Source of the DNA: a virus
IMG/VR virus record: IMGVR_UViG_3300025379_000094
Span: 1-21,014 of that record
Strand: one strand, 5' to 3'
DNA length: 21,014 nucleotides
The position numbers and the translations under genes were made by a program. Shown piece by piece: positions 2-8,931 of this stretch. How positions within the stretch are numbered: position 1 is the stretch's first letter; every line of letters begins with the position of its first letter. Below the pieces are notes generated by a model. That model was not told the origin of the DNA. It searched no databases and was given only the letters and a program-made list of their open reading frames with translations.

Positions 2-1627
2 CTGGTGACATTCAAATCAGGTTTAATCATTGCTAAACAAAAACCTGCTGGCTCGATTGTCAATCGCTTAATGCAAAATGCTGCTGGTATCAAGCGCACC
101 TATTTGCAAGAAGGCGGTACTGGTAATGTGCTCTCCATTGATATTGATGAGGAAATCAACTCCATTGATTTGACCAATACCGCAACATCTATGACAACTG
201 CCAGAGATAACATCATTGCTAATATCGCTGCTGCTTCTGATGTTCCTGCAATGCTGCTTAAAGATGAAGCCTTCACCCAGGGATTTGGTGAGGGTACTGA
301 AGATGCTAAAGCCATTGTGCAATACATTGATGGCATCCGAGTTGACATGGAAAGCCTATTCGCTTTCTTTGACAAAATTGTCATGCACCGAGCCTGGAAT
401 AAAGAATTCTATGAAGCTGTCAAGAAATCCTATCCAGAGATTTATCGCAAGATGTCTTATGAGCAAGCCTTCTATAGCTGGCAAAAGAACTTCAAAGCTG
501 AGTGGGAATCCCTCATGGAAGAACCAGAGTCTGAAAAGGTCAAGGTTGCTGACATCAAGCTAAAAGGTATTACTGAAATTCTTCGGACTGTATTGCCAGT
601 TGCAGATGGTCAAAATAGAGCCATTCTCATTCAATGGGCGCAAGATAATATCAATGAAATGCCTGATATGTTTCAAAGCAGCTTACAAATTGATACTGAT
701 GCCCTGGCTGAATATGAGCCACCGCAAGAGTCAATGCCAGAAGAAAAAATGCCAAGAGCAGATGGGGGGAAATGGGCTAACCCCATCCCAAAGGCTGATG
801 CTTTCCTAGAAGCAGATCATCCAAGAGATGCTGATGGGAAATTTACTACTGGTTCAGGTGGTAGTGTTGCTACTGAACCTATGGGTAGACAGACCGCAGC
901 GATTACTGCACCAGTAGCTAAGACTGCGCTGATCGAAAAACCACAAGCACCAAAGGCTAAGACTGTCGAAAAGCCAAAAGCACCAACCGCTAATCGAGTG
1001 AAAGAGTTGTTATCAGGTAAGCTGCAACAAGCTGATGTAGAGAGATTGCCTGAAGAAAAGCAAAAAATCTTTACTGAAATGTATGAGAAGGCAGCCGAGA
1101 ATAAAGATCACTTTGACAATACCAATACAAGGATCGCTGAAGAACTAGGTGGTCGGGCTGCCATTGTGCCATTGAAGGGATCGCAAAGAGCAGTCGATAA
1201 GATTACTAAGTCTTATGACAATGATCCAACCAAGATTAAAGATTTACTTCGCACAACCATTGAGATTAAATCGCTAAAGGATGTCAATAGCGCAATTGAT
1301 AAACTCAAAGCTGAATATGGTGAACCAGTAAAGCTAAGAAATTTACTTGATCCTAAGACTGACTCATTGGGTGGATCTGGCTATCGAGATGTCAATATGG
1401 TAGTTGAGGTAAATGGCTCTTATGCTGAAGTGCAGATTAATCTACCAGCAATGATGGAAGCCAAAGAAAAGGCACATGGTTACTATGAGGAAGTTCGCAT
1501 CATTTTAGAAGATGCAGCACAAGCTGGTAAACAACTTAATGTCTATGAAGAAGCTAAGGTCAAAAACCTAAATGATAAGATGAAGGCTCTTTATGATGCA
1601 GCCTGGGAATCCATCACTAAGGCTTGA
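2..1627 (+). CDS. Phage portal protein (DUF1073 type), 5'-truncated, with C-terminal RelA/SpoT-like domain
   Basis: This is the 3' part of a portal gene. The frame is open to the window edge, so the GTG at 5 is only the first possible start codon in view and the true start lies upstream. Numbering from that GTG, residues 1 to about 240 look like the end of a DUF1073 portal, the dodecameric DNA gate of the capsid, followed by acidic/proline linker. At about 270-287 there is a DHPRDADGKFTTGSGG junction of the type seen before cargo domains in phage head proteins. An Ala/Pro/Lys-rich spacer follows. Residues about 331-540 resemble a RelA/SpoT synthetase fold: a KGSQR segment (391-395), DLLRTTIEI (413-421), GYRDVN with Y460 in the place of the G-loop tyrosine, and AEVQI with E475 in the place of the catalytic glutamate. 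The arginine that follows QI in RelA is Asn here. The portal call is fairly firm. Enzymatic activity of the C-terminal domain is unproven. Confidence 0.82.
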   Translation: MVTFKSGLIIAKQKPAGSIVNRLMQNAAGIKRTYLQEGGTGNVLSIDIDEEINSIDLTNTATSMTTARDNIIANIAAASDVPAMLLKDEAFTQGFGEGTEDAKAIVQYIDGIRVDMESLFAFFDKIVMHRAWNKEFYEAVKKSYPEIYRKMSYEQAFYSWQKNFKAEWESLMEEPESEKVKVADIKLKGITEILRTVLPVADGQNRAILIQWAQDNINEMPDMFQSSLQIDTDALAEYEPPQESMPEEKMPRADGGKWANPIPKADAFLEADHPRDADGKFTTGSGGSVATEPMGRQTAAITAPVAKTALIEKPQAPKAKTVEKPKAPTANRVKELLSGKLQQADVERLPEEKQKIFTEMYEKAAENKDHFDNTNTRIAEELGGRAAIVPLKGSQRAVDKITKSYDNDPTKIKDLLRTTIEIKSLKDVNSAIDKLKAEYGEPVKLRNLLDPKTDSLGGSGYRDVNMVVEVNGSYAEVQINLPAMMEAKEKAHGYYEEVRIILEDAAQAGKQLNVYEEAKVKNLNDKMKALYDAAWESITKA

Positions 1628-1809
1628 AATACTTGAGCATTGCTAGGCAGCAGGAATTCTTCTTTGAGTGAAAATTCTTTTGGTTCACCTTTAATCCAGA
1701 TAGCTACCATTGGTATATCTTTTCCAGCATTGACTGATACTGGCAAACCATCTTCTGAAGTTACATAGAAGATAGCTGATGGACTGATTTCGTAATTACC
1801 AATTTTCAT
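1591..1809 (-). CDS. Hypothetical small phage protein (72 aa), convergent with the portal gene
   Basis: I do not recognise this protein. It starts MKIGNYEISPSAIFYV and reads like a small beta-rich soluble protein, with no membrane segment or signal peptide. I chose the ATG at 1809 because AAAGGG lies 6 nt upstream on the minus strand. A TTG five codons earlier has no comparable ribosome binding site. Its 3' end overlaps the 3' end of the portal gene by 37 nt on the opposite strand. It is the last gene of the leftward block and is separated from the next gene upstream by a minus-strand terminator hairpin. It may therefore depend on read-through or on a weak promoter of its own (TTGAGG, 16 nt, TAAAAT) overlapping that terminator. 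Confidence 0.6.
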   Translation of the reverse strand: MKIGNYEISPSAIFYVTSEDGLPVSVNAGKDIPMVAIWIKGEPKEFSLKEEFLLPSNAQVFQALVMDSQAAS

Positions 1810-1841
1810 ATATTGCCCTTTCAATTCATTTTATCATATAA

Positions 1842-1863
1842 CAAAAAGCCCTCAAAAGGGCTT
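1842..1863 (-). terminator. Rho-independent terminator of the leftward small-gene block
   Basis: Read on the minus strand, AAGCCC, a TTTTGA loop and GGGCTT form a six-pair stem followed directly by TTTGTT, giving a U-rich tail. The plus-strand reading has no T tract after the stem. It therefore serves leftward transcripts coming from the genes at 2452 to 1880. Confidence 0.65.
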
Positions 1864-2823: not shown

Positions 2824-3021
2824 ATGAATTTATTGATTGCTGAAAAAGTTGGCGGTTCTTTTCAAAAAATCGGTGTCATGAATGGCGATGAGTTGCTTGC
2901 AGATTGTTTGCTTGCTGTCGGTCTTGCCTACAATGCCAAAAGGTTTTTTGAAGGAGATTCGGCAGCAGTTTTTCTGGATTATCAGTTAGAGGGTATTGAG
3001 TACAGAGTTTTAAAGTTTTAA
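2824..3021 (+). CDS. Hypothetical small protein (65 aa)
   Basis: I do not recognise this protein (MNLLIAEKVGGSFQKIGVMN...). It has alternating hydrophobic and polar residues with a helical centre (ADCLLAVGLAYNAKRFF), and is probably a small soluble alpha/beta protein. AAGGGGG lies 5 nt before the ATG, and the gene follows the 57 aa gene closely, so it is in the same rightward transcript. The next gene begins 26 nt after its stop. Confidence 0.62.
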   Translation: MNLLIAEKVGGSFQKIGVMNGDELLADCLLAVGLAYNAKRFFEGDSAAVFLDYQLEGIEYRVLKF

Positions 3022-3047
3022 GTAGTTCAACCACGAAAGGAGTTGTT

Positions 3048-3290
3048 ATGAAATACCAATTAGATGTTAGTCGTGATGTAGATGCGGATGGCGATGCCTA
3101 TATGCTCTGGCTGCCATTCGGCTTTAGATTTTCAGATGATTTAGTCCATGTCCGAGGTTTTGACACTATGGCTGAAATTCGACAAGCTGCCAAAAATGAT
3201 GTTATTCCCTGCGATTGTGAAGATTGCAAGTTGAATATCAAAGAATTGGCTGCCAAGAAAGCATCTTTTATGAAGGAAATGCTGAAGTAG
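3048..3290 (+). CDS. Hypothetical protein (80 aa) with a CDCEDC cysteine cluster
   Basis: Start at 3048 is set by CCACGAAAGGAG 8 nt upstream, another copy of the island leader. The protein is acidic in its first third (DVSRDVDADGDAY), has an aromatic stretch (MLWLPFGFRF) and carries CDCEDC near residues 55-60 followed by a Lys-rich helix. Three closely spaced cysteines could bind metal, but there is no second cluster for a classical zinc ribbon. No family recognised. A hairpin and then another promoter follow at once, so it is probably the last gene of the first rightward transcript. Confidence 0.62.
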   Translation: MKYQLDVSRDVDADGDAYMLWLPFGFRFSDDLVHVRGFDTMAEIRQAAKNDVIPCDCEDCKLNIKELAAKKASFMKEMLK

Positions 3291-3294
3291 CAAA

Positions 3295-3325
3295 AATGCA
3301 ACAACCCTAAAAAAGTTGTTGCATT
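3295..3325. repeat. Perfect 11-bp inverted repeat overlapping a promoter
   Basis: AATGCAACAAC (3295-3305) and GTTGTTGCATT (3315-3325) are perfect complements around the nine-base loop CCTAAAAAA. On the plus strand no T tract follows, so it is a poor rightward terminator. On the minus strand the stem is followed by TTTGC, but I see no leftward gene it would serve. The right arm contains the TTGCAT -35 box of the next promoter, so it may be a repressor site or a transcript-end stabiliser. Confidence 0.6.
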
Positions 3326-3346
3326 AATACTAAATAGGTATATACT
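3319..3346 (+). promoter_or_regulatory. Sigma70-type promoter, rightward (second cassette)
   Basis: TTGCAT (3319-3324), 16 nt, TATACT (3341-3346). The spacer shares ATACTAAATAGG with the promoter at 2573, and the downstream GTGTAGTAATTAACCACGAAAGGA leader matches too. The -35 box is inside the right arm of the 3295-3325 inverted repeat. Confidence 0.6.
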
Positions 3347-3380
3347 GAAAGTGTAGTAATTAACCACGAAAGGAAAAATT

Positions 3381-3713
3381 ATGAAAGAAGTTGAAATCTG
3401 GGCTGGCAAAAAAGTCATGGCATACCAGGATGCTGACTTGGTCGAGAAAATGCCCTACATCAAAGCTGCTGAATCTGTCTGGTATCAAAGCTGGTTGGAC
3501 AATGGCGGTGAGGATGTCGGTAGCTGCTGCGGTGGCAAAGCGATTCGGATTTACTACTTGGGCAAAGGCAAAAGAAATGTTGTAGAAAAAAGCATTGTGC
3601 CTTGCAGCTTTGTCCAGGGAAATGTGGCTGCTGCGAAATCAGTTGCCCCTGCTTTGGAATTTTTGGCTGCTCATGGGATTGTCGGTGAGTATTACGATGG
3701 TTGGATGGATTGA
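3381..3713 (+). CDS. Hypothetical protein (110 aa)
   Basis: The ATG at 3381 follows TAACCACGAAAGGAAAAATT, the common island leader, and its own promoter. The protein starts MKEVEIWAGKKVMAYQDADL and has a central SCCGGKAIRIYYLGKGKR segment with a Cys-Cys pair in a Gly-rich loop followed by basic residues. The second half is more helical (AAAKSVAPALEFLAAHG), ending YYDGWMD. I do not recognise a family. It looks like a compact soluble protein and shows no membrane segment. It is the first gene of the second rightward transcript, before a small GC hairpin. Confidence 0.65.
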   Translation: MKEVEIWAGKKVMAYQDADLVEKMPYIKAAESVWYQSWLDNGGEDVGSCCGGKAIRIYYLGKGKRNVVEKSIVPCSFVQGNVAAAKSVAPALEFLAAHGIVGEYYDGWMD

Positions 3714-4063: not shown

Positions 4064-4552
4064 ATGGAAAAGCAAGTTAGTCGTCATGCTGGTGCTGCCA
4101 AAATGATTCGGGCTTACATGAAAGCCAAAGGAATCCCTGGTAGTGTTCGCAGCAAAAGTTATTCAATGGGTAGTAGTGTTCATGTGGATGTTGTCGATTT
4201 GCCACCAGCCCAGTATGAAGATTTGAGAAAGTATGTTGCTCAGTTTGAATATGGTCATTTTGATGGAATGATTGACTACTATGAAATGGACAATGTGAGA
4301 GATGACATTCCCCAGGTCAAGTATGCCTTTGTTAACAACAAAATGAGTGATGAGTTGGGCGAGAAGATTTACCAATTCATGAAAGGCTATTACTCTGGTA
4401 TGGAAGGTGCTCCAGATAGTTTCAAAGATGCTCATAGTTTCTTCAATATGAGTTTCAATGGGTATGCCAGCCACTTGGTTTACAAGTTGTTTGCTGGTGG
4501 TTATATGCAAAACCAGTACTATGAGTTTGTAGAAGGACAGAAAGCAGCATAA
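4064..4552 (+). CDS. LPD29-domain protein (large polyvalent protein-associated domain 29)
   Basis: The 162 aa protein has near residues 10-77 a pattern I associate with LPD29: an N-terminal helix (AAKMIRAYMKAKG), then SVRSKSYSMGSSVHVDV, then FEYGHFDGMIDYYE. This domain is usually part of very large polyvalent proteins that phages and conjugative elements are thought to deliver with their DNA, but free copies also occur. Its activity is not known. The second half (to residue 162) is aromatic-rich and unassigned. The start follows the CACGAAAGGAAATT leader. Its stop overlaps the start of the alarmone hydrolase gene by one base (TAATG), so the two are likely translated together. Confidence 0.6.
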   Translation: MEKQVSRHAGAAKMIRAYMKAKGIPGSVRSKSYSMGSSVHVDVVDLPPAQYEDLRKYVAQFEYGHFDGMIDYYEMDNVRDDIPQVKYAFVNNKMSDELGEKIYQFMKGYYSGMEGAPDSFKDAHSFFNMSFNGYASHLVYKLFAGGYMQNQYYEFVEGQKAA

Positions 4553-5079
4553 TGAATATAGATATTATTTTGGATGCCATATCTTTTGCTATTGATAAGC
4601 ATGGAAAGCAGGTTCGGAAAGATGCTGAAGAATCTGCCTACATTAGACACCCAATCGAGGTGGCTCAATTGTTGATTATGGCTGGTGTTGTTGATGAGGA
4701 TGTGATCGCTGCTGCGGTCTTGCATGATGTAGTAGAAGATTGTGGGGTTTCGGTGGCTGACATTTCTGCTCGCTTTAATCCTAGAATTGGATTGATTGTG
4801 CAAGAGGTTAGCGATGATCCTGCTTTAAGTGGCATGGCTCGTAAAGATGCCCAGGTAGTCAAAGTTGGCATGATTAGTCCAGAAGGTAAATTAATCAAAG
4901 TAGCGGATAAAATCTGTAACTTGCAAGATGTTTTGTATAGACCCCCTGTAACTTGGGATGATGCTAAAAAGGCTGCCTATTTTGATTTTGCAGAAAGAGT
5001 TTTTAATGCTGCCAATATTAAAAACCCTTATTTGATTGAGTGCTTCAATGATTTAATGGAAAAAAGAATTGTAATTTAA
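4552..5079 (+). CDS. HD-domain (p)ppGpp hydrolase, Mesh1/small alarmone hydrolase type
   Basis: This 175 aa protein covers the typical length of a stand-alone SpoT/Mesh1 hydrolase. In order: H17 in the KHGKQVRK segment; YIRHPIEVA with metal ligand H33; AAAVLHDVVED with H58-D59 and the catalytic pair E62-D63; and KLIKVADKICNL with D119 and N123. All match the HD hydrolase pattern that removes the 3'-pyrophosphate from ppGpp and, in toxSAS antitoxins, can also undo pyrophosphorylated tRNA or alarmone analogues. There is no synthetase, TGS or ACT domain. It is cytosolic. The start overlaps the LPD29 stop (TAATG), and its own stop overlaps the HTH start in the same way. Likely roles are lowering alarmone levels during infection, or protecting the cell from the RelA/SpoT-like domain on this phage's portal. 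Confidence 0.85.
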   Translation: MNIDIILDAISFAIDKHGKQVRKDAEESAYIRHPIEVAQLLIMAGVVDEDVIAAAVLHDVVEDCGVSVADISARFNPRIGLIVQEVSDDPALSGMARKDAQVVKVGMISPEGKLIKVADKICNLQDVLYRPPVTWDDAKKAAYFDFAERVFNAANIKNPYLIECFNDLMEKRIVI

Positions 5080-5285
5080 TGAATAAAAGAAATCGGGGTA
5101 CTGCTGGTGTAGTGCCTAATACAACTGAAATTATTGCAGCCAGGGGTGATTTATCACAATCCAAAGCAGCATCTTTAATATATACTACCCAAGCTAGGTG
5201 GAGTAATTACGAAACTGGAAAGAGTCGTATGCACCCTGCTTCTTGGGAACTTTTTATATTAAAGACTAAGCATGACATTTTATGA
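5079..5285 (+). CDS. Small helix-turn-helix DNA-binding protein (XRE-like)
   Basis: The 68 aa protein has one HTH: LSQSKAASLIYTTQARWSNYE around residues 25-45, followed by TGKSRMHPASWELFILKT. This matches a common phage/plasmid class of compact HTH proteins that bind DNA as regulators. It has no other domain, so there is no effector-binding part visible. The start overlaps the stop of the alarmone hydrolase (TAATG) and its end overlaps the next gene by 14 nt, so translation of hydrolase, HTH and minor head protein may be coupled. It is a natural candidate to act on the repeated promoters or the inverted repeats of the island, but no binding site is proven. Confidence 0.72.
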   Translation: MNKRNRGTAGVVPNTTEIIAARGDLSQSKAASLIYTTQARWSNYETGKSRMHPASWELFILKTKHDIL

Positions 5286-6072
5286 AGTCTTAACTGCTGC
5301 CATCAATGACTTTATCGAGCATGGTTTCGATTCCCAAAGTCGAGTAGATTCCTGGCTAAAGAAAATCAAAGAAGCTGCGGAAAAGGCTTTAATTTCTGAT
5401 GAGCAAATGCAAAGAGAAATGGAAAAGGCTTTAAATGCAGCCTTCTCCAGACTAGTAACCAAAGGCGGTTTAGTTAACAAAGATGTCAGTAAATATGACA
5501 TTGAGAAACTCAAGCCTAAACTTCGGGCTGAATTAGATCGCAGAATAATGGCTTCTGCCAATCTGATTAAATACAACCGAGAGCAAAGTATTACAGATGT
5601 CCTCAGAAGGTTTGAAGGATGGGCTACATCCATTCCTAAAGGCGGTTCACTCGCAGTAGATCGCAACAAAGAAAAACAAAATATCAAGAAATCTTTAGCA
5701 AAGATGCCTTTTAATCAAAGGCGAGTTGTAATAGATCAAACCCATAAACTCATTGCTAACATTAATGACATTGTCGCTATTGATAATGGCGCAATTGCTG
5801 GTAAATGGCACTCTCATTGGAAGCAGATTAATTATGATTACCGCAAGGATCATAAAGAGAGAGATGAAAAAGTTTATGTCATCCGAGGTAATTGGGCTTC
5901 GGAAAAGGGTTACATTAAAGCAATTAATGGATATACTGATGACATTACCTCACCAGGTGAGGAAGTGTATTGTCGGTGTAACTACAAGTATATTTACAGC
6001 TTGCGAAAAATGCCTAAAGAAATGCTGACAAAAAAGGGTGAACTAGCGGTACAATCGTCAAAAATATTGTAG
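5272..6072 (+). CDS. Minor head / head morphogenesis protein (SPP1 gp7 / Mu gpF type)
   Basis: The 266 aa protein has a long helical first half. The C-terminal region (WHSHWKQINYDYRKDHKERD, then KVYVIRGNW, and SPGEEVYCRCNYKY near residues 185-245) is the usual ending of Mu gpF-like minor head proteins, including the paired cysteines of CRC. These proteins bind near the portal inside the capsid and help assembly or DNA injection. Normally they directly follow the portal gene. Here about 3.6 kb of accessory genes lie between. The start is inside the HTH gene (14 nt overlap) with only a weak ribosome binding site. I see no toxin domain on its C-terminus, unlike the portal in this genome. Confidence 0.75.
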   Translation: MTFYEVLTAAINDFIEHGFDSQSRVDSWLKKIKEAAEKALISDEQMQREMEKALNAAFSRLVTKGGLVNKDVSKYDIEKLKPKLRAELDRRIMASANLIKYNREQSITDVLRRFEGWATSIPKGGSLAVDRNKEKQNIKKSLAKMPFNQRRVVIDQTHKLIANINDIVAIDNGAIAGKWHSHWKQINYDYRKDHKERDEKVYVIRGNWASEKGYIKAINGYTDDITSPGEEVYCRCNYKYIYSLRKMPKEMLTKKGELAVQSSKIL

Positions 6073-6080
6073 GGTAGTTT

Positions 6081-8285
6081 ATGCCATTTGAATCCGAAGC
6101 ACAAAGAAAAGCTATGTATGCTGCTTTAGCAGGGCATAGCAATATCGGAATTCCTAAAGAAGTGGCTAAAAAATTCATCAAACATAGTGAAGATGAAGTC
6201 CCAGAAGAACCTACTCTTTTATCTACCCCAGAAGAAGAAATCCAAGTTCGCAATGGTAGAAAAGAAGAAATTAAAAAATTTAAAGGTGATTTGGCTGATG
6301 TAGCCAGAATCATTCAAGGTCTTAAAGATCAATCTCAGGTTGTACCTCGCTTTGGTCAAGATGCCGATCCTTGTTGGGAAGGCTACAAACAAGTTGGCAT
6401 GAAAGAAAAAGATGGCAAAGAAGTGCCAAATTGTGTGCCAGATGCTGCTGATCTAGTAGCCAAAACTCCAGAAGTAGTTATGCCAGTTGCTAATAATGCA
6501 GGTGCAGCAGGTCGGGCTTCTGGAATCATGTTTGTTACTGGTGAAGGTCATACCCTATTAATTCGCAGGGGCGCAGGTGGTGGAGATTACCCTAGTACCT
6601 GGTGTGTGCCTGGCGGTCATCAAAAAGAAGGCGAAACCCTAGAAGAAGCTGCTCGCAGAGAAACCAAGGAAGAAACTGGTATTGAGTACAAGGGTAAGCT
6701 AGAAGTATTACATGATGATGGACAATTCTGCACCTACATTGCTAGAAATGTAGAAAAAGTCGATGTCAAACTCAATTATGAGTCTACTGGCTATGATTGG
6801 TGCGATCCATTAAATCCACCATTGCCATTGCATCCTGGTTTAGAAGTTGCTTTTAAGATTGCATCTGCTAAGACTGAAACCGATGTAGCACAATTAATGG
6901 CTGATGACTTATTACCAAGTCCTCAGATGTATGCAAATATTGGTCTTTTTGCTATTCGCATTACTGGTACTGGCTTGGCTTATCGGTCAAGCATTGGCGA
7001 GAATGTATGGCGAGATCCATCCCTTTATTTGAATGAAGAATTCTTAAAGAGATGTAATGGCTTGATGGTAATCATGGATCACCCAGAGACTGCGGTTTTG
7101 ACTTCTAAGGAATTTAAAGATCGAGCAGTCGGAAGTATTATGCTTCCCTACATCAAAGGTGATGAAGTCTGGGGCATTGCAAAAATCTATGACCAAGATG
7201 CTGTCGATGAAATTTGTGAGGGAGAGATTTCTACCTCACCTTCAGTAGTATTTGACAATACTGCTGGAAACACTACACTAACTACTGAGAATGGCGAGCC
7301 ACTCTTAATAGAAGGTGTCCCATTCCTTTTAGATCATATAGCTATTGTTACAAAAGCTAGAGGATCTAAGGGTGTATGGGATAAGGGTGGCGATGCCACA
7401 GGAGTTCTTTTAAATAACCAAGAGGTGTCTGATATGAATGACAATACTATTGCACCAAAGGCAGATGCCCAAGGTGATAAGTTGGATGCTGTACTCGCTA
7501 TGCTAGGCGATTTGGCTGCAAGAATGGATGCGATGGAGAAGGAATTACCTGCTCCACCATTAGTTACTGCTGCTGATAAAAAAGCAAAAAAAGATGATGA
7601 TATGAAGAAACATCGTAAAGATGACGATGAAGAAGCATATTCTGATGACGAAGAAGAAGCTAAGAAGGATGACGATGAGTCTGAAGGCGAAGCTAAAAAA
7701 GAAATGATGCGTAAAGTGGATGCTAAGAAAAAGCACCGCAAAGATGCAGAAGGCTCTGATCCTAAAGAGCATGACAAAGGTGAAATTAAGCCAGATGATG
7801 AAGGCGAAGTTGAGCACCCAGGTCACATGGAATTCAAAAAAGATGATGACGAAGAAGAAGAAGCAATGCGTAAAGATGAAGAAGAAGCTGCAATGTGTGA
7901 TGCACAAGCTAAAGCTGACTCTGTATTCGCTTCCTTTGGCAAGTCTGCATCTCGCCCATTAAAAGGCGAAGGTTTAATGTCTTATCGCAAGCGTCTGCTT
8001 CGTGGCTTACAAGCCTATTCTGACAGCTACAAGTCAGTAAACTTGGCTTCCATCAAAGATGCTCAATTGTTGAATATCGCTGAAAAGCAGATTTTCAATG
8101 ATGCTTTAATGGCTGCTAAATCCCCAAGTATGTTCGCTGCTGACCAACTCATTGAAATGAATGAGAAGGATCGTGCTGGTCGTACTATTACGAAGTTCAA
8201 AGGCTCAATGGAAGCATGGTTAGGTGACTTTAAAGTACCTTCTATGCGAGTTAAAGAATTTCATCTTTTCAACAACAAGCGATAA
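6081..8285 (+). CDS. Nudix hydrolase - prohead protease (DUF2213) - scaffold fusion protein
   Basis: This 734 aa protein appears to have four parts. Residues 1-40 form a short phage leader motif (MPFESEAQRKAMYAALAG). A Nudix domain lies near 145-262 with a full Nudix box: G179, E185, R193, E194, E197, E198, G200. A DUF2213-like capsid protease lies near 280-445, with H334 in MDHP, serines in STSPS (385-389) and H419 in LDHIAIV as likely active-site residues. A coiled/acidic scaffold region runs from about 452, with Lys/Asp/Glu low complexity at 500-605 and a conserved-looking helical end. The protease matures the procapsid and the scaffold is cut and expelled. The role of the Nudix part is unclear: it could hydrolyse nucleoside diphosphate-linked compounds. 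A good internal ribosome binding site may also give free scaffold. Confidence 0.78.
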   Translation: MPFESEAQRKAMYAALAGHSNIGIPKEVAKKFIKHSEDEVPEEPTLLSTPEEEIQVRNGRKEEIKKFKGDLADVARIIQGLKDQSQVVPRFGQDADPCWEGYKQVGMKEKDGKEVPNCVPDAADLVAKTPEVVMPVANNAGAAGRASGIMFVTGEGHTLLIRRGAGGGDYPSTWCVPGGHQKEGETLEEAARRETKEETGIEYKGKLEVLHDDGQFCTYIARNVEKVDVKLNYESTGYDWCDPLNPPLPLHPGLEVAFKIASAKTETDVAQLMADDLLPSPQMYANIGLFAIRITGTGLAYRSSIGENVWRDPSLYLNEEFLKRCNGLMVIMDHPETAVLTSKEFKDRAVGSIMLPYIKGDEVWGIAKIYDQDAVDEICEGEISTSPSVVFDNTAGNTTLTTENGEPLLIEGVPFLLDHIAIVTKARGSKGVWDKGGDATGVLLNNQEVSDMNDNTIAPKADAQGDKLDAVLAMLGDLAARMDAMEKELPAPPLVTAADKKAKKDDDMKKHRKDDDEEAYSDDEEEAKKDDDESEGEAKKEMMRKVDAKKKHRKDAEGSDPKEHDKGEIKPDDEGEVEHPGHMEFKKDDDEEEEAMRKDEEEAAMCDAQAKADSVFASFGKSASRPLKGEGLMSYRKRLLRGLQAYSDSYKSVNLASIKDAQLLNIAEKQIFNDALMAAKSPSMFAADQLIEMNEKDRAGRTITKFKGSMEAWLGDFKVPSMRVKEFHLFNNKR
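7422..7436 (+). promoter_or_regulatory. Internal ribosome binding site and start for a nested scaffold protein
   Basis: GAGGTG (7422-7427) lies 6 nt before an in-frame ATG (7434-7436), codon 452 of the fusion gene. This falls exactly between the protease domain and the coiled scaffold region. Starting here would give a 283 aa scaffold (MNDNTIAPKADAQGDK...) ending at 8285, as with lambda Nu3 nested in gene C. Confidence 0.5.
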
Positions 8286-8295
8286 GGAATAAGCC

Positions 8296-8931
8296 ATGAC
8301 AGCGCAAATCTCTTTACAGCCAATGGTAACAACTGTAGCTGGTGGTTTATTTAACACCAATAGCAATGGTTTTACTCAAGGCGATGCACTCGATGATCCA
8401 GCAGTTAAGTTTGCTTTAGCATCTGGTACTCTTTCAACTTCTGCAACAACTCCTTTGTGGGGCGGTGTTCCAATTACTGAGTTCATCCCAACTCTGCAAA
8501 ATGGTTACTATTCGCAGCCACAACCAGGTACTGATACATTAGGTGGTACAGTTGCTCAAGCTACTGTATCTTCTGCTCCTACTGGTATTGCTGTATACAA
8601 CCAAGCATTTGGTGGTATTACAACTCCTCAGTCCACAGCACCTTTGTTCTCACCTGGTATGTCTGTAAACTTCTACCGCTTCGGTAGTAATGCTCGTATT
8701 CCATTGCCTTGCGATACTTCTATCGTAGCTTTGGATGGTTCATCCATTACTGAGACTGTATACTGGGACACTACCAACCTACTCTTGACTACAACTGCTA
8801 CTAGCAACTTTGCTGTACCTTGCAAGATTCTTCGCACAAGTACTGCTAATAACAAGTTAGTATCATATTCAAGCGTAACTGGTAATGCTAACTGGACTTC
8901 AACTGGCTATATTGCAGTTGTTCAAATCTAA
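8296..8931 (+). CDS. Probable head decoration / capsid-associated structural protein
   Basis: This is a 211 aa, Ser/Thr/Gly-rich, beta-rich protein starting MTAQISLQPMVTTVAGGLFN, with almost no lysine and no long helix. AAGGAATAAGCC sits before the ATG. Its position, directly between the protease/scaffold gene and the major capsid gene, is where tailed phages of the DUF2213/DUF2184 type keep their cement or decoration protein. Composition and place suggest it binds the outside of the capsid. I cannot see a specific family motif. A head fibre is the alternative. Confidence 0.6.
   Translation: MTAQISLQPMVTTVAGGLFNTNSNGFTQGDALDDPAVKFALASGTLSTSATTPLWGGVPITEFIPTLQNGYYSQPQPGTDTLGGTVAQATVSSAPTGIAVYNQAFGGITTPQSTAPLFSPGMSVNFYRFGSNARIPLPCDTSIVALDGSSITETVYWDTTNLLLTTTATSNFAVPCKILRTSTANNKLVSYSSVTGNANWTSTGYIAVVQI

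What the first reader, a model, noticed from the sequence alone, without database searches (positions are those of the whole stretch)
4552..5079. Intact Mesh1-type alarmone hydrolase in the same phage, candidate antidote for the portal-fused domain
The 175 aa protein keeps H33, H58, D59, E62, D63, D119 and N123, i.e. every HD-hydrolase residue I can check. In toxSAS systems a small alarmone hydrolase can be the antitoxin of a RelA/SpoT-fold toxin. Here the two are not adjacent genes but sit about 3 kb apart, separated by accessory genes. One model is that the host cell is protected during virion production while the enzyme is packed. An alternative is that the hydrolase alone simply removes host (p)ppGpp to keep rRNA and protein synthesis high. 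Both parts in one genome raise the odds of linked function.
Basis: partly seen in the sequence, partly recalled or inferred. Interest (0 to 1): 0.85.

Follow-up and report, generated by a model that had tools for sequence, protein, structure and literature searches.

The report
Hydrolase antidote to portal-fused alarmone toxin
This phage carries an intact alarmone-destroying enzyme that, across related viruses, is present only where an alarmone-making toxin rides on the virus's DNA-entry (portal) protein, so it is most likely a second, general antidote beside a small dedicated antidote gene lying directly behind the toxin.

Summary
4552-5079 (+) encodes a 175-aa small alarmone hydrolase (SAH) with all seven named residues; its best solved relative is human MESH1 (E 9e-30). 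The portal C-terminal domain 3 kb upstream is best matched, by sequence and by fold, by Tas1, a (p)ppApp-making toxin.

The pairing idea is supported but incomplete. Records of relatives with the toxin domain and adequate flanks all carry an HD hydrolase; 24 records with the same portal but no toxin carry none, although they share other accessory genes of the region. In Bordetella phage PHB04 and relatives the hydrolase sits just behind the toxin.

A third gene was missed: a 71-aa ORF on the minus strand (1591-1806), tail-to-tail with the toxin, without match in Pfam or the PDB. It accompanies nearly every toxin copy. In two pairs of near-identical phages, toxin and small gene were replaced together while the hydrolase stayed. 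This fits a specific, binding immunity plus a general, product-hydrolysing one, the published logic of the MuF toxin Apk2 with IapK and Aph1.

I call it a new variant of the known Apk/IapK/Aph1 system, on a portal carrier. Activity, substrate and delivery are untested.

The parts
4552..5079 (+). SAH: MESH1-type HD hydrolase, 175 aa; proposed product-hydrolysing (Aph1-like) immunity
   Evidence: purifying selection; presence tracks the toxin domain
2..1627 (+). portal protein, 5'-truncated by the window (760 aa in the identical L003); carries the toxin domain at its C-terminus
   Evidence: full-length relatives match PF06381 Phage_portal_3
989..1624 (+). toxin domain (TAS): Tas1/Apk-like alarmone synthetase; conserved K63, R67, D85, R88, T90, GYRD, E147, Q149, K159, H163
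   Evidence: AF2 pLDDT 95.6; top fold hit Tas1 6ox6_A, E 2e-8
815..988 (+). linker between portal core and toxin: DHPRDADGKFTTGSGG then Ala/Pro/Lys-rich; the DHPR..G.F motif recurs in portals with other C-terminal domains and in free-standing TAS ORFs
1591..1806 (-). IMM: 71-aa ORF, tail-to-tail with the portal gene (37-nt overlap); proposed cognate binding immunity protein
   Evidence: dN/dS 0.10-0.18 on the non-overlapping part; AF2 pLDDT 93; swapped with TAS
1828..1863 (-). terminator-like hairpin (1863-1846) and promoter-like TTGAGG-16-TAAAAT (1855-1828) ahead of IMM; weak, numbers found in the scan are near chance
5079..5285 (+). 68-aa weak HTH-like ORF directly behind SAH; context gene, also present in 6 of 24 TAS-minus loci
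5272..6072 (+). MuF-like head morphogenesis protein without toxin domain; places SAH inside the head-gene block
   Evidence: phrog_324, 3.8e-25

Best explanation
The window holds a dispersed three-gene toxin-immunity set. The toxin is a Tas1/Apk-like alarmone synthetase domain fused to the portal protein; it probably pyrophosphorylates ADP/ATP to (p)ppApp and drains ATP. The small protein at 1591-1806(-) is probably the cognate immunity that binds and blocks that domain. The finding's hydrolase, SAH, is most likely the second, general immunity: an Mn-dependent HD enzyme that removes the 3'-pyrophosphate from the product and returns ADP/ATP, so that the cell making virions is not killed while portal-toxin accumulates. 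Shown here: the genes, intact catalytic residues, purifying selection, co-occurrence, co-replacement of toxin and small gene, retention of the hydrolase. Inferred: enzymatic activity, substrate, binding, timing, and any delivery with the virion.
For: (1) Homology: SAH to MESH1, TAS to Tas1 by sequence and fold. Human Mesh1 lowers killing by Apk1/Tas1 by two orders of magnitude (PMC12691689). (2) Association: 14 TAS+ portal records with adequate flanks carry an HD protein, one of them seen only as its last 14 codons at a contig end; 0 of 24 TAS-minus portal records do (Fisher 1e-10 by record, 5e-5 by 97% portal clusters). LPD29, HTH and other accessory genes occur in 1-8 of those TAS-minus loci, SAH and IMM in none. 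(3) The trio TAS-small gene-SAH lies head to tail in Bordetella phage PHB04 and in L091, L066, L089, L090. (4) Swaps: L145 vs L146 portal 98%, SAH 180/182, TAS 52%, IMM 46%; D vs F families portal 491/492, upstream HD 171/172, TAS 52%, IMM 54%. (5) Cassette exchange: L148, otherwise 98-99% identical in DNA to L145, has a metalloprotease ORF and a 57-codon ORF in place of TAS...SAH. (6) Distances correlate: TAS-IMM r 0.96, TAS-SAH r 0.87. (7) Precedent: apk2-iapK-aph1, Aph1 universal and IapK mostly cognate-specific.
Against: No enzyme assay. Most phage HD hydrolases have no such toxin, so a hydrolase can serve a phage alone. L092 (97.9 kb) has TAS and IMM but no HD_4 protein, and the E family (L018, 21 kb record) shows none. 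D and F families carry a different, more distant HD protein upstream instead of SAH. IMM has no sequence or fold match to Tis1 or any solved protein. TAS syn3 reads GYRDVN, not the GxN of Apk2. The portal normally stays on the capsid, so delivery needs cleavage or another route. Mantel values mix two phage groups and partly reflect shared ancestry.
Confidence: 0.7

Rival explanations
1. SAH is independent of the toxin: it removes host (p)ppGpp during infection to keep rRNA and protein synthesis high, and merely lies in the same variable region.
For: HD/SAH proteins are widespread in phages without the toxin domain: 223 phage records against 2 records (one phage) with TAS. MESH1-type enzymes also act on (p)ppGpp. 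SAH is in one piece with ordinary accessory genes.
Against: Absent from 24 TAS-minus records of the same portal lineage while other accessory genes of the region are present there. Adjacent to TAS and the small gene in unrelated phages. TAS-linked SAHs cluster in the tree.
Confidence: 0.2
2. IMM alone is the antitoxin; SAH is a leftover or a defence against alarmones made by other phages or by host toxSAS (CapRel-type) defences.
For: IMM is found directly behind nearly every TAS with downstream sequence; SAH is missing in L092 and not seen in the E family. SAH could relieve CapRel-like or T6SS toxins of others.
Against: The strict SAH-TAS association within the portal lineage. SAH is under strong purifying selection. 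Precedent of paired binding and enzymatic immunities (PMC12226406, PMC11699363).
Confidence: 0.15
3. The portal domain is not a toxin but a pacing enzyme: it makes an alarmone during the late phase or in the virion, and SAH resets the signal.
For: The fusion is to an essential structural protein; TAS is also close in fold to the exported alarmone synthetase SaEAS, which does not affect its producer's growth (PMC12691689).
Against: Toxin/IMM allele swapping and replacement by zeta-kinase or metalloprotease domains at the same place is the signature of polymorphic toxins, not of a phage housekeeping signal.
Confidence: 0.1

Closest known systems
Apk2-IapK-Aph1 of temperate phages (S. pneumoniae, M. 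haemolytica, P. multocida, B. caccae)
   Same: phage head-gene locus; C-terminal (p)ppApp-synthetase-like domain on a head protein; followed by a small non-enzymatic gene and an HD hydrolase; small gene co-varies with the toxin, hydrolase does not
   Different: carrier is the portal protein instead of MuF; small gene is on the opposite strand; hydrolase displaced by 2.9 kb of accessory genes; IMM shows no detectable relation to solved immunity proteins
Apk1 = Tas1 / Tis1 (type VI secretion, P. aeruginosa)
   Same: closest solved relative of the toxin domain by sequence (5e-15) and fold (2e-8)
   Different: no PAAR domain or secretion system; IMM matches no PDB chain by profile or fold, the Tas1-immunity complex 6ox6 included
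MESH1 / small alarmone hydrolases
   Same: same HD_4 fold family, all catalytic residues, aligned over nearly the whole length
   Different: phage gene; substrate untested
MuF polymorphic toxins (Jamet 2017) and portal-fused effectors (Iyer 2017)
   Same: variable C-terminal enzyme domains on head proteins; portal fusions to PBECR, 2H and InPase domains were already reported
   Different: portal carries alarmone synthetase, zeta-like kinase or an uncharacterised domain, TAS with paired immunities; no report of this found in the papers searched
toxSAS toxin-antitoxin modules (FaRel, FaRel2, CapRel, PhRel)
   Same: RelA/SpoT-fold toxin opposed by hydrolase and/or binding antitoxin
   Different: fold match to FaRel2 is far weaker than to Tas1; not a compact operon; fused to a virion protein

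Membership tests
Small alarmone hydrolase (MESH1/SAH) | HD_4 fold with H, HD, ED, D, N catalytic set and RKD motif | tested here: met
Small alarmone hydrolase (MESH1/SAH) | hydrolysis of (p)ppGpp and/or (p)ppApp | not testable with these tools
   needs purified protein
Apk-IapK-Aph1 phage toxin system | synthetase domain of the Apk type (R-x-T at syn2, N at syn3, non-R at syn4) | tested here: met
   window KDLLRTT, GYRDVN, EVQIN; syn3 has D where Apk2 has G (motif definitions)
Apk-IapK-Aph1 phage toxin system | small immunity gene next to the toxin | tested here: met
   small ORF directly behind TAS in nearly all loci with downstream sequence; homology to IapK itself not tested, no IapK sequence at hand
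Apk-IapK-Aph1 phage toxin system | HD hydrolase encoded with the toxin | tested here: met
   2.9 kb away in the window, adjacent in PHB04-type phages; exceptions L092, E family
Apk2 (in the strict sense) | toxin domain fused to MuF | tested here: not met
   fused to the portal; the MuF-like protein 5272-6072 has no toxin domain. Only L021 is a MuF fusion
Apk1/Tas1 | PAAR/T6SS carrier and Tis1-type immunity | tested here: not met
   portal carrier; IMM profile and model do not match any PDB chain
Polymorphic toxin | variable C-terminal toxin domains on a constant carrier, each with its own small downstream gene | tested here: met
   TAS, zeta-like kinase (Pfam Zeta_toxin E 7e-4, below cut-off, L100) and others on the same portal; metalloprotease ORF in L148/L105. 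Toxicity itself untested
toxSAS toxin-antitoxin | tRNA- or nucleotide-pyrophosphorylating toxin in a bicistronic TA operon | tested here: not met
   no bicistronic operon in the window; closest fold is Tas1, not FaRel2; activity untested

The most novel reading that the evidence does not exclude
The portal protein of a large group of freshwater phages that lack recognisable integrases is a general carrier of interchangeable toxins (alarmone synthetase, zeta-like kinase, others). The toxins are stored at the DNA-entry vertex, possibly freed by cleavage at the DHPR linker, and delivered or used against competing phages. Producers protect themselves with a cognate inhibitor plus a universal alarmone hydrolase, which also protects against foreign alleles.
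Probability: 0.3. Interest if true: 0.8.

Novelty: new variant of a known kind. Interest (0 to 1): 0.6.

Why it matters
It extends phage-head polymorphic toxins from the minor head protein MuF to the portal, an essential ring (12 subunits in characterised tailed phages, from general knowledge) through which all DNA passes, and gives natural experiments separating two layers of immunity. The near-identical pairs (L145/L146, D/F, L145/L148) make the roles of specific and universal immunity directly testable. It also names a new small candidate immunity family with a confident predicted fold and no solved relative.

Tried and rejected
SAH as the sole, cognate antidote: rejected because IMM is more tightly linked and is swapped with the toxin. 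IMM homologous to Tis1: profile search of the PDB gave no hit at E<=10, and fold searches of PDB and viral models gave nothing at E<=0.001. PADLOC models: no hits for SAH, TAS or IMM. NCBIfam: SAH matches only RelA/SpoT models and a phosphonate-degradation HD model, all far below cut-off. Programmed frameshift joining portal and TAS in L145: rejected, TAS there is a separate ORF starting at an ATG with an AGGAG-like site behind the portal stop. Lysogeny as the reason for immunity: no tyrosine or serine integrase model hit in eight 43-52 kb portal-family records, though the PHB04 group has a tyrosine integrase. Promoter/terminator scan: counts near chance, so used only as a hint. The PNAS 2023 paper on (p)ppApp hydrolases was not held.

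Full report
Observation. The ORF at 4552-5079 is real, 175 aa, with every named HD residue. It matches Pfam HD_4 at 1.6e-15, and its best solved relatives are human and fly MESH1. It evolves under purifying selection (dN/dS 0.035-0.10). The partner domain, window 989-1624 at the C-terminus of the portal (5'-truncated here, 760 aa in the identical L003), has one PDB sequence hit, Tas1 (5e-15). A confident model (pLDDT 95.6) finds Tas1 first (E 2e-8) and the exported alarmone synthetase SaEAS second; FaRel2 comes far behind. Across 21 diverse copies K63, R67, D85, R88, T90, GYRD, E147, Q149, K159 and H163 never vary. The syn motifs read R-x-T, N and [IV]N like Tas1, not the AVR/SxH/IR of (p)ppGpp synthetases. 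The syn3 glycine of Apk2 is D here, so (p)ppApp as product is likely but inferred.

A missed third gene. Mapping relatives showed a small ORF, window 1591-1806 minus, overlapping the last 37 nt of the portal gene tail-to-tail. It lies in the same place behind TAS copies down to about 39% identity, in families A-F and in free-standing TAS ORFs. In L021, where TAS is fused to a MuF protein, its homologue follows on the plus strand with overlapping stop and start. In PHB04-type phages a short, similarly placed ORF follows; its homology to the window's ORF is weak (19% identity for PHB04), and the profile that found it was built with PHB04 included. Loci without a recognisable copy, apart from those cut off inside or right after TAS, are L064, L085, L087 and the fragmentary L093-L095. 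The window's ORF folds confidently (pLDDT 93) but matches nothing solved or viral. dN/dS on its non-overlapping part is 0.10-0.18 against close relatives.

Co-occurrence. Relatives of the portal core give a comparison set. Pfam HD_4 and the divergent HD protein of L015 were sought in whole records. Fourteen TAS+ records with adequate flanks have an HD protein: most the SAH itself; families D and F a more distant HD protein about 4.5 kb upstream of the portal, one (L071) seen only as its last 14 codons at the contig end. Three further D/F records are cut off before that position. None of 24 TAS-minus records (10-52 kb) has one. Fisher p is 1e-10 by record, 2e-8 with the truncated three counted against, 5e-5 by portal clusters at 97% (one mixed cluster set aside) and 3e-4 at 90%; at 80% clusters mix and the test has no power. 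As a specificity control, most other accessory genes of the window region occur in 1-8 of the TAS-minus loci, IMM and SAH in 0.

Swaps. L145 and L146 share portal (98%), linker (84/85) and SAH (180/182), but TAS is 52% and IMM 46% identical. D and F share portal (491/492) and upstream HD (171/172), but TAS is 52% and IMM 54% identical. So TAS and IMM change as a unit and the hydrolase stays. L148 matches L145 at 97.8% and 98.9% DNA identity on both sides, yet in place of TAS, IMM, small genes and SAH it has an ORF with an HEMTH metalloprotease motif and a small ORF. The replaced segment also holds other accessory genes, so this case alone does not single out SAH. Other portals carry a zeta-like kinase (L100, L112, L117, L121, L154) at the same place.

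Independent linkage. In the cultured Bordetella phage PHB04 the order is portal, TAS protein, 70-aa gene, SAH, all on one strand; the same trio is seen in L091, L066 (an Oxalobacteraceae MAG), L089 and L090. TAS-linked SAHs fall mostly into two clades, and the label needs 6 changes against 15 in shuffles (one row, L001, is the window's own and was mislabelled 'no'). TAS, IMM and SAH distances correlate, partly through shared ancestry.

Mechanism. Published work on phage Apk2 shows the same three-part logic: a toxin domain on a head protein, IapK that binds it and is mostly allele-specific, and Aph1 that hydrolyses the product and protects across alleles (PMC12226406; PMC11699363). Mesh1 partly rescues Apk1 killing (PMC12691689). 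I therefore read SAH as the Aph1-like layer and IMM as the IapK-like layer. How a portal-fused toxin leaves the capsid is open; the DHPR linker and the separate TAS ORFs of L145/L146 suggest cleavage or separate packaging, which is speculation. Earlier work knew portal fusions to other enzymes (PBECR, 2H, InPase) and RelA/SpoT or zeta fusions to MuF (PMC5512222; PMC5576092). I found no report of a portal-fused alarmone synthetase with immunities, within an open-access library only.

Limits. Records are mostly fragments; clusters are few; L092 and the E family have TAS and IMM without a detected hydrolase; most phage HD hydrolases have no TAS. No activity was tested.

Noticed in passing
L100 9245-11845, L112, L117, L121, L154: Portals of the same lineage carry a zeta-toxin-like P-loop kinase domain instead of TAS; L117, L121 and L154 are followed by a small acidic ORF (about 65 aa) that may be its immunity.
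   Followed up: partly
L148 968-2638, L105 10667-12154: A free-standing ORF behind the portal with the same N-terminus as the TAS ORF of L145 but an HEMTH metalloprotease-like C-terminus, followed by a 50-57-codon ORF.
   Followed up: partly
window 815-870; L018, L100, L110, L115, L117, L146: DHPR-x-x-x-G-[KQ]-F-x-x-G-x-G-G linker motif shared by portals with different C-terminal domains, by an unrelated portal type (L018) and by free-standing TAS ORFs; possible cleavage or packaging signal.
   Followed up: partly
window 6081-8285: 734-aa protein joins a Nudix domain (4.7e-15) to DUF2213 (prohead-protease-like); a Nudix hydrolase in a head-maturation protein could also act on nucleotides.
   Followed up: no
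NC_047861 (L062) 5472-8432 -: Cultured Bordetella phage PHB04 has TAS, small gene, SAH and a serine/threonine phosphatase head to tail behind the portal, annotated as hypothetical proteins and a phosphohydrolase.
   Followed up: yes
L107 4431-4949, L111 4250-4768: Families D and F have a divergent HD (alarmone-hydrolase-like) gene upstream of the portal in place of SAH in the downstream slot.
   Followed up: yes
window 5079-5285; L018 5175-5393: The small HTH-like gene is 73% identical between phages with unrelated portals (window and L018) and sits near the toxin in both; it also occurs without TAS.
   Followed up: partly
L156 (Azospirillum plasmid) 2950-3669, L157 (Photobacterium plasmid) 3001-3534: TAS-like domains on plasmids outside phage head genes; no immunity-like or hydrolase gene is annotated beside the Azospirillum one; possibly exported alarmone synthetases.
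   Followed up: no
L095 7950-8318, L093, L094: 122-aa fragment of the TAS domain just upstream of a MuF-like gene, in a record that also has an HD_4 protein; looks like a remnant.
   Followed up: no
contig IMGVR_UViG_3300025789_000007 (L002, L023): 49-kb record identical to the window with TAS near its end and SAH near its start; looks like a circularly permuted, near-complete genome of the same phage.
   Followed up: partly
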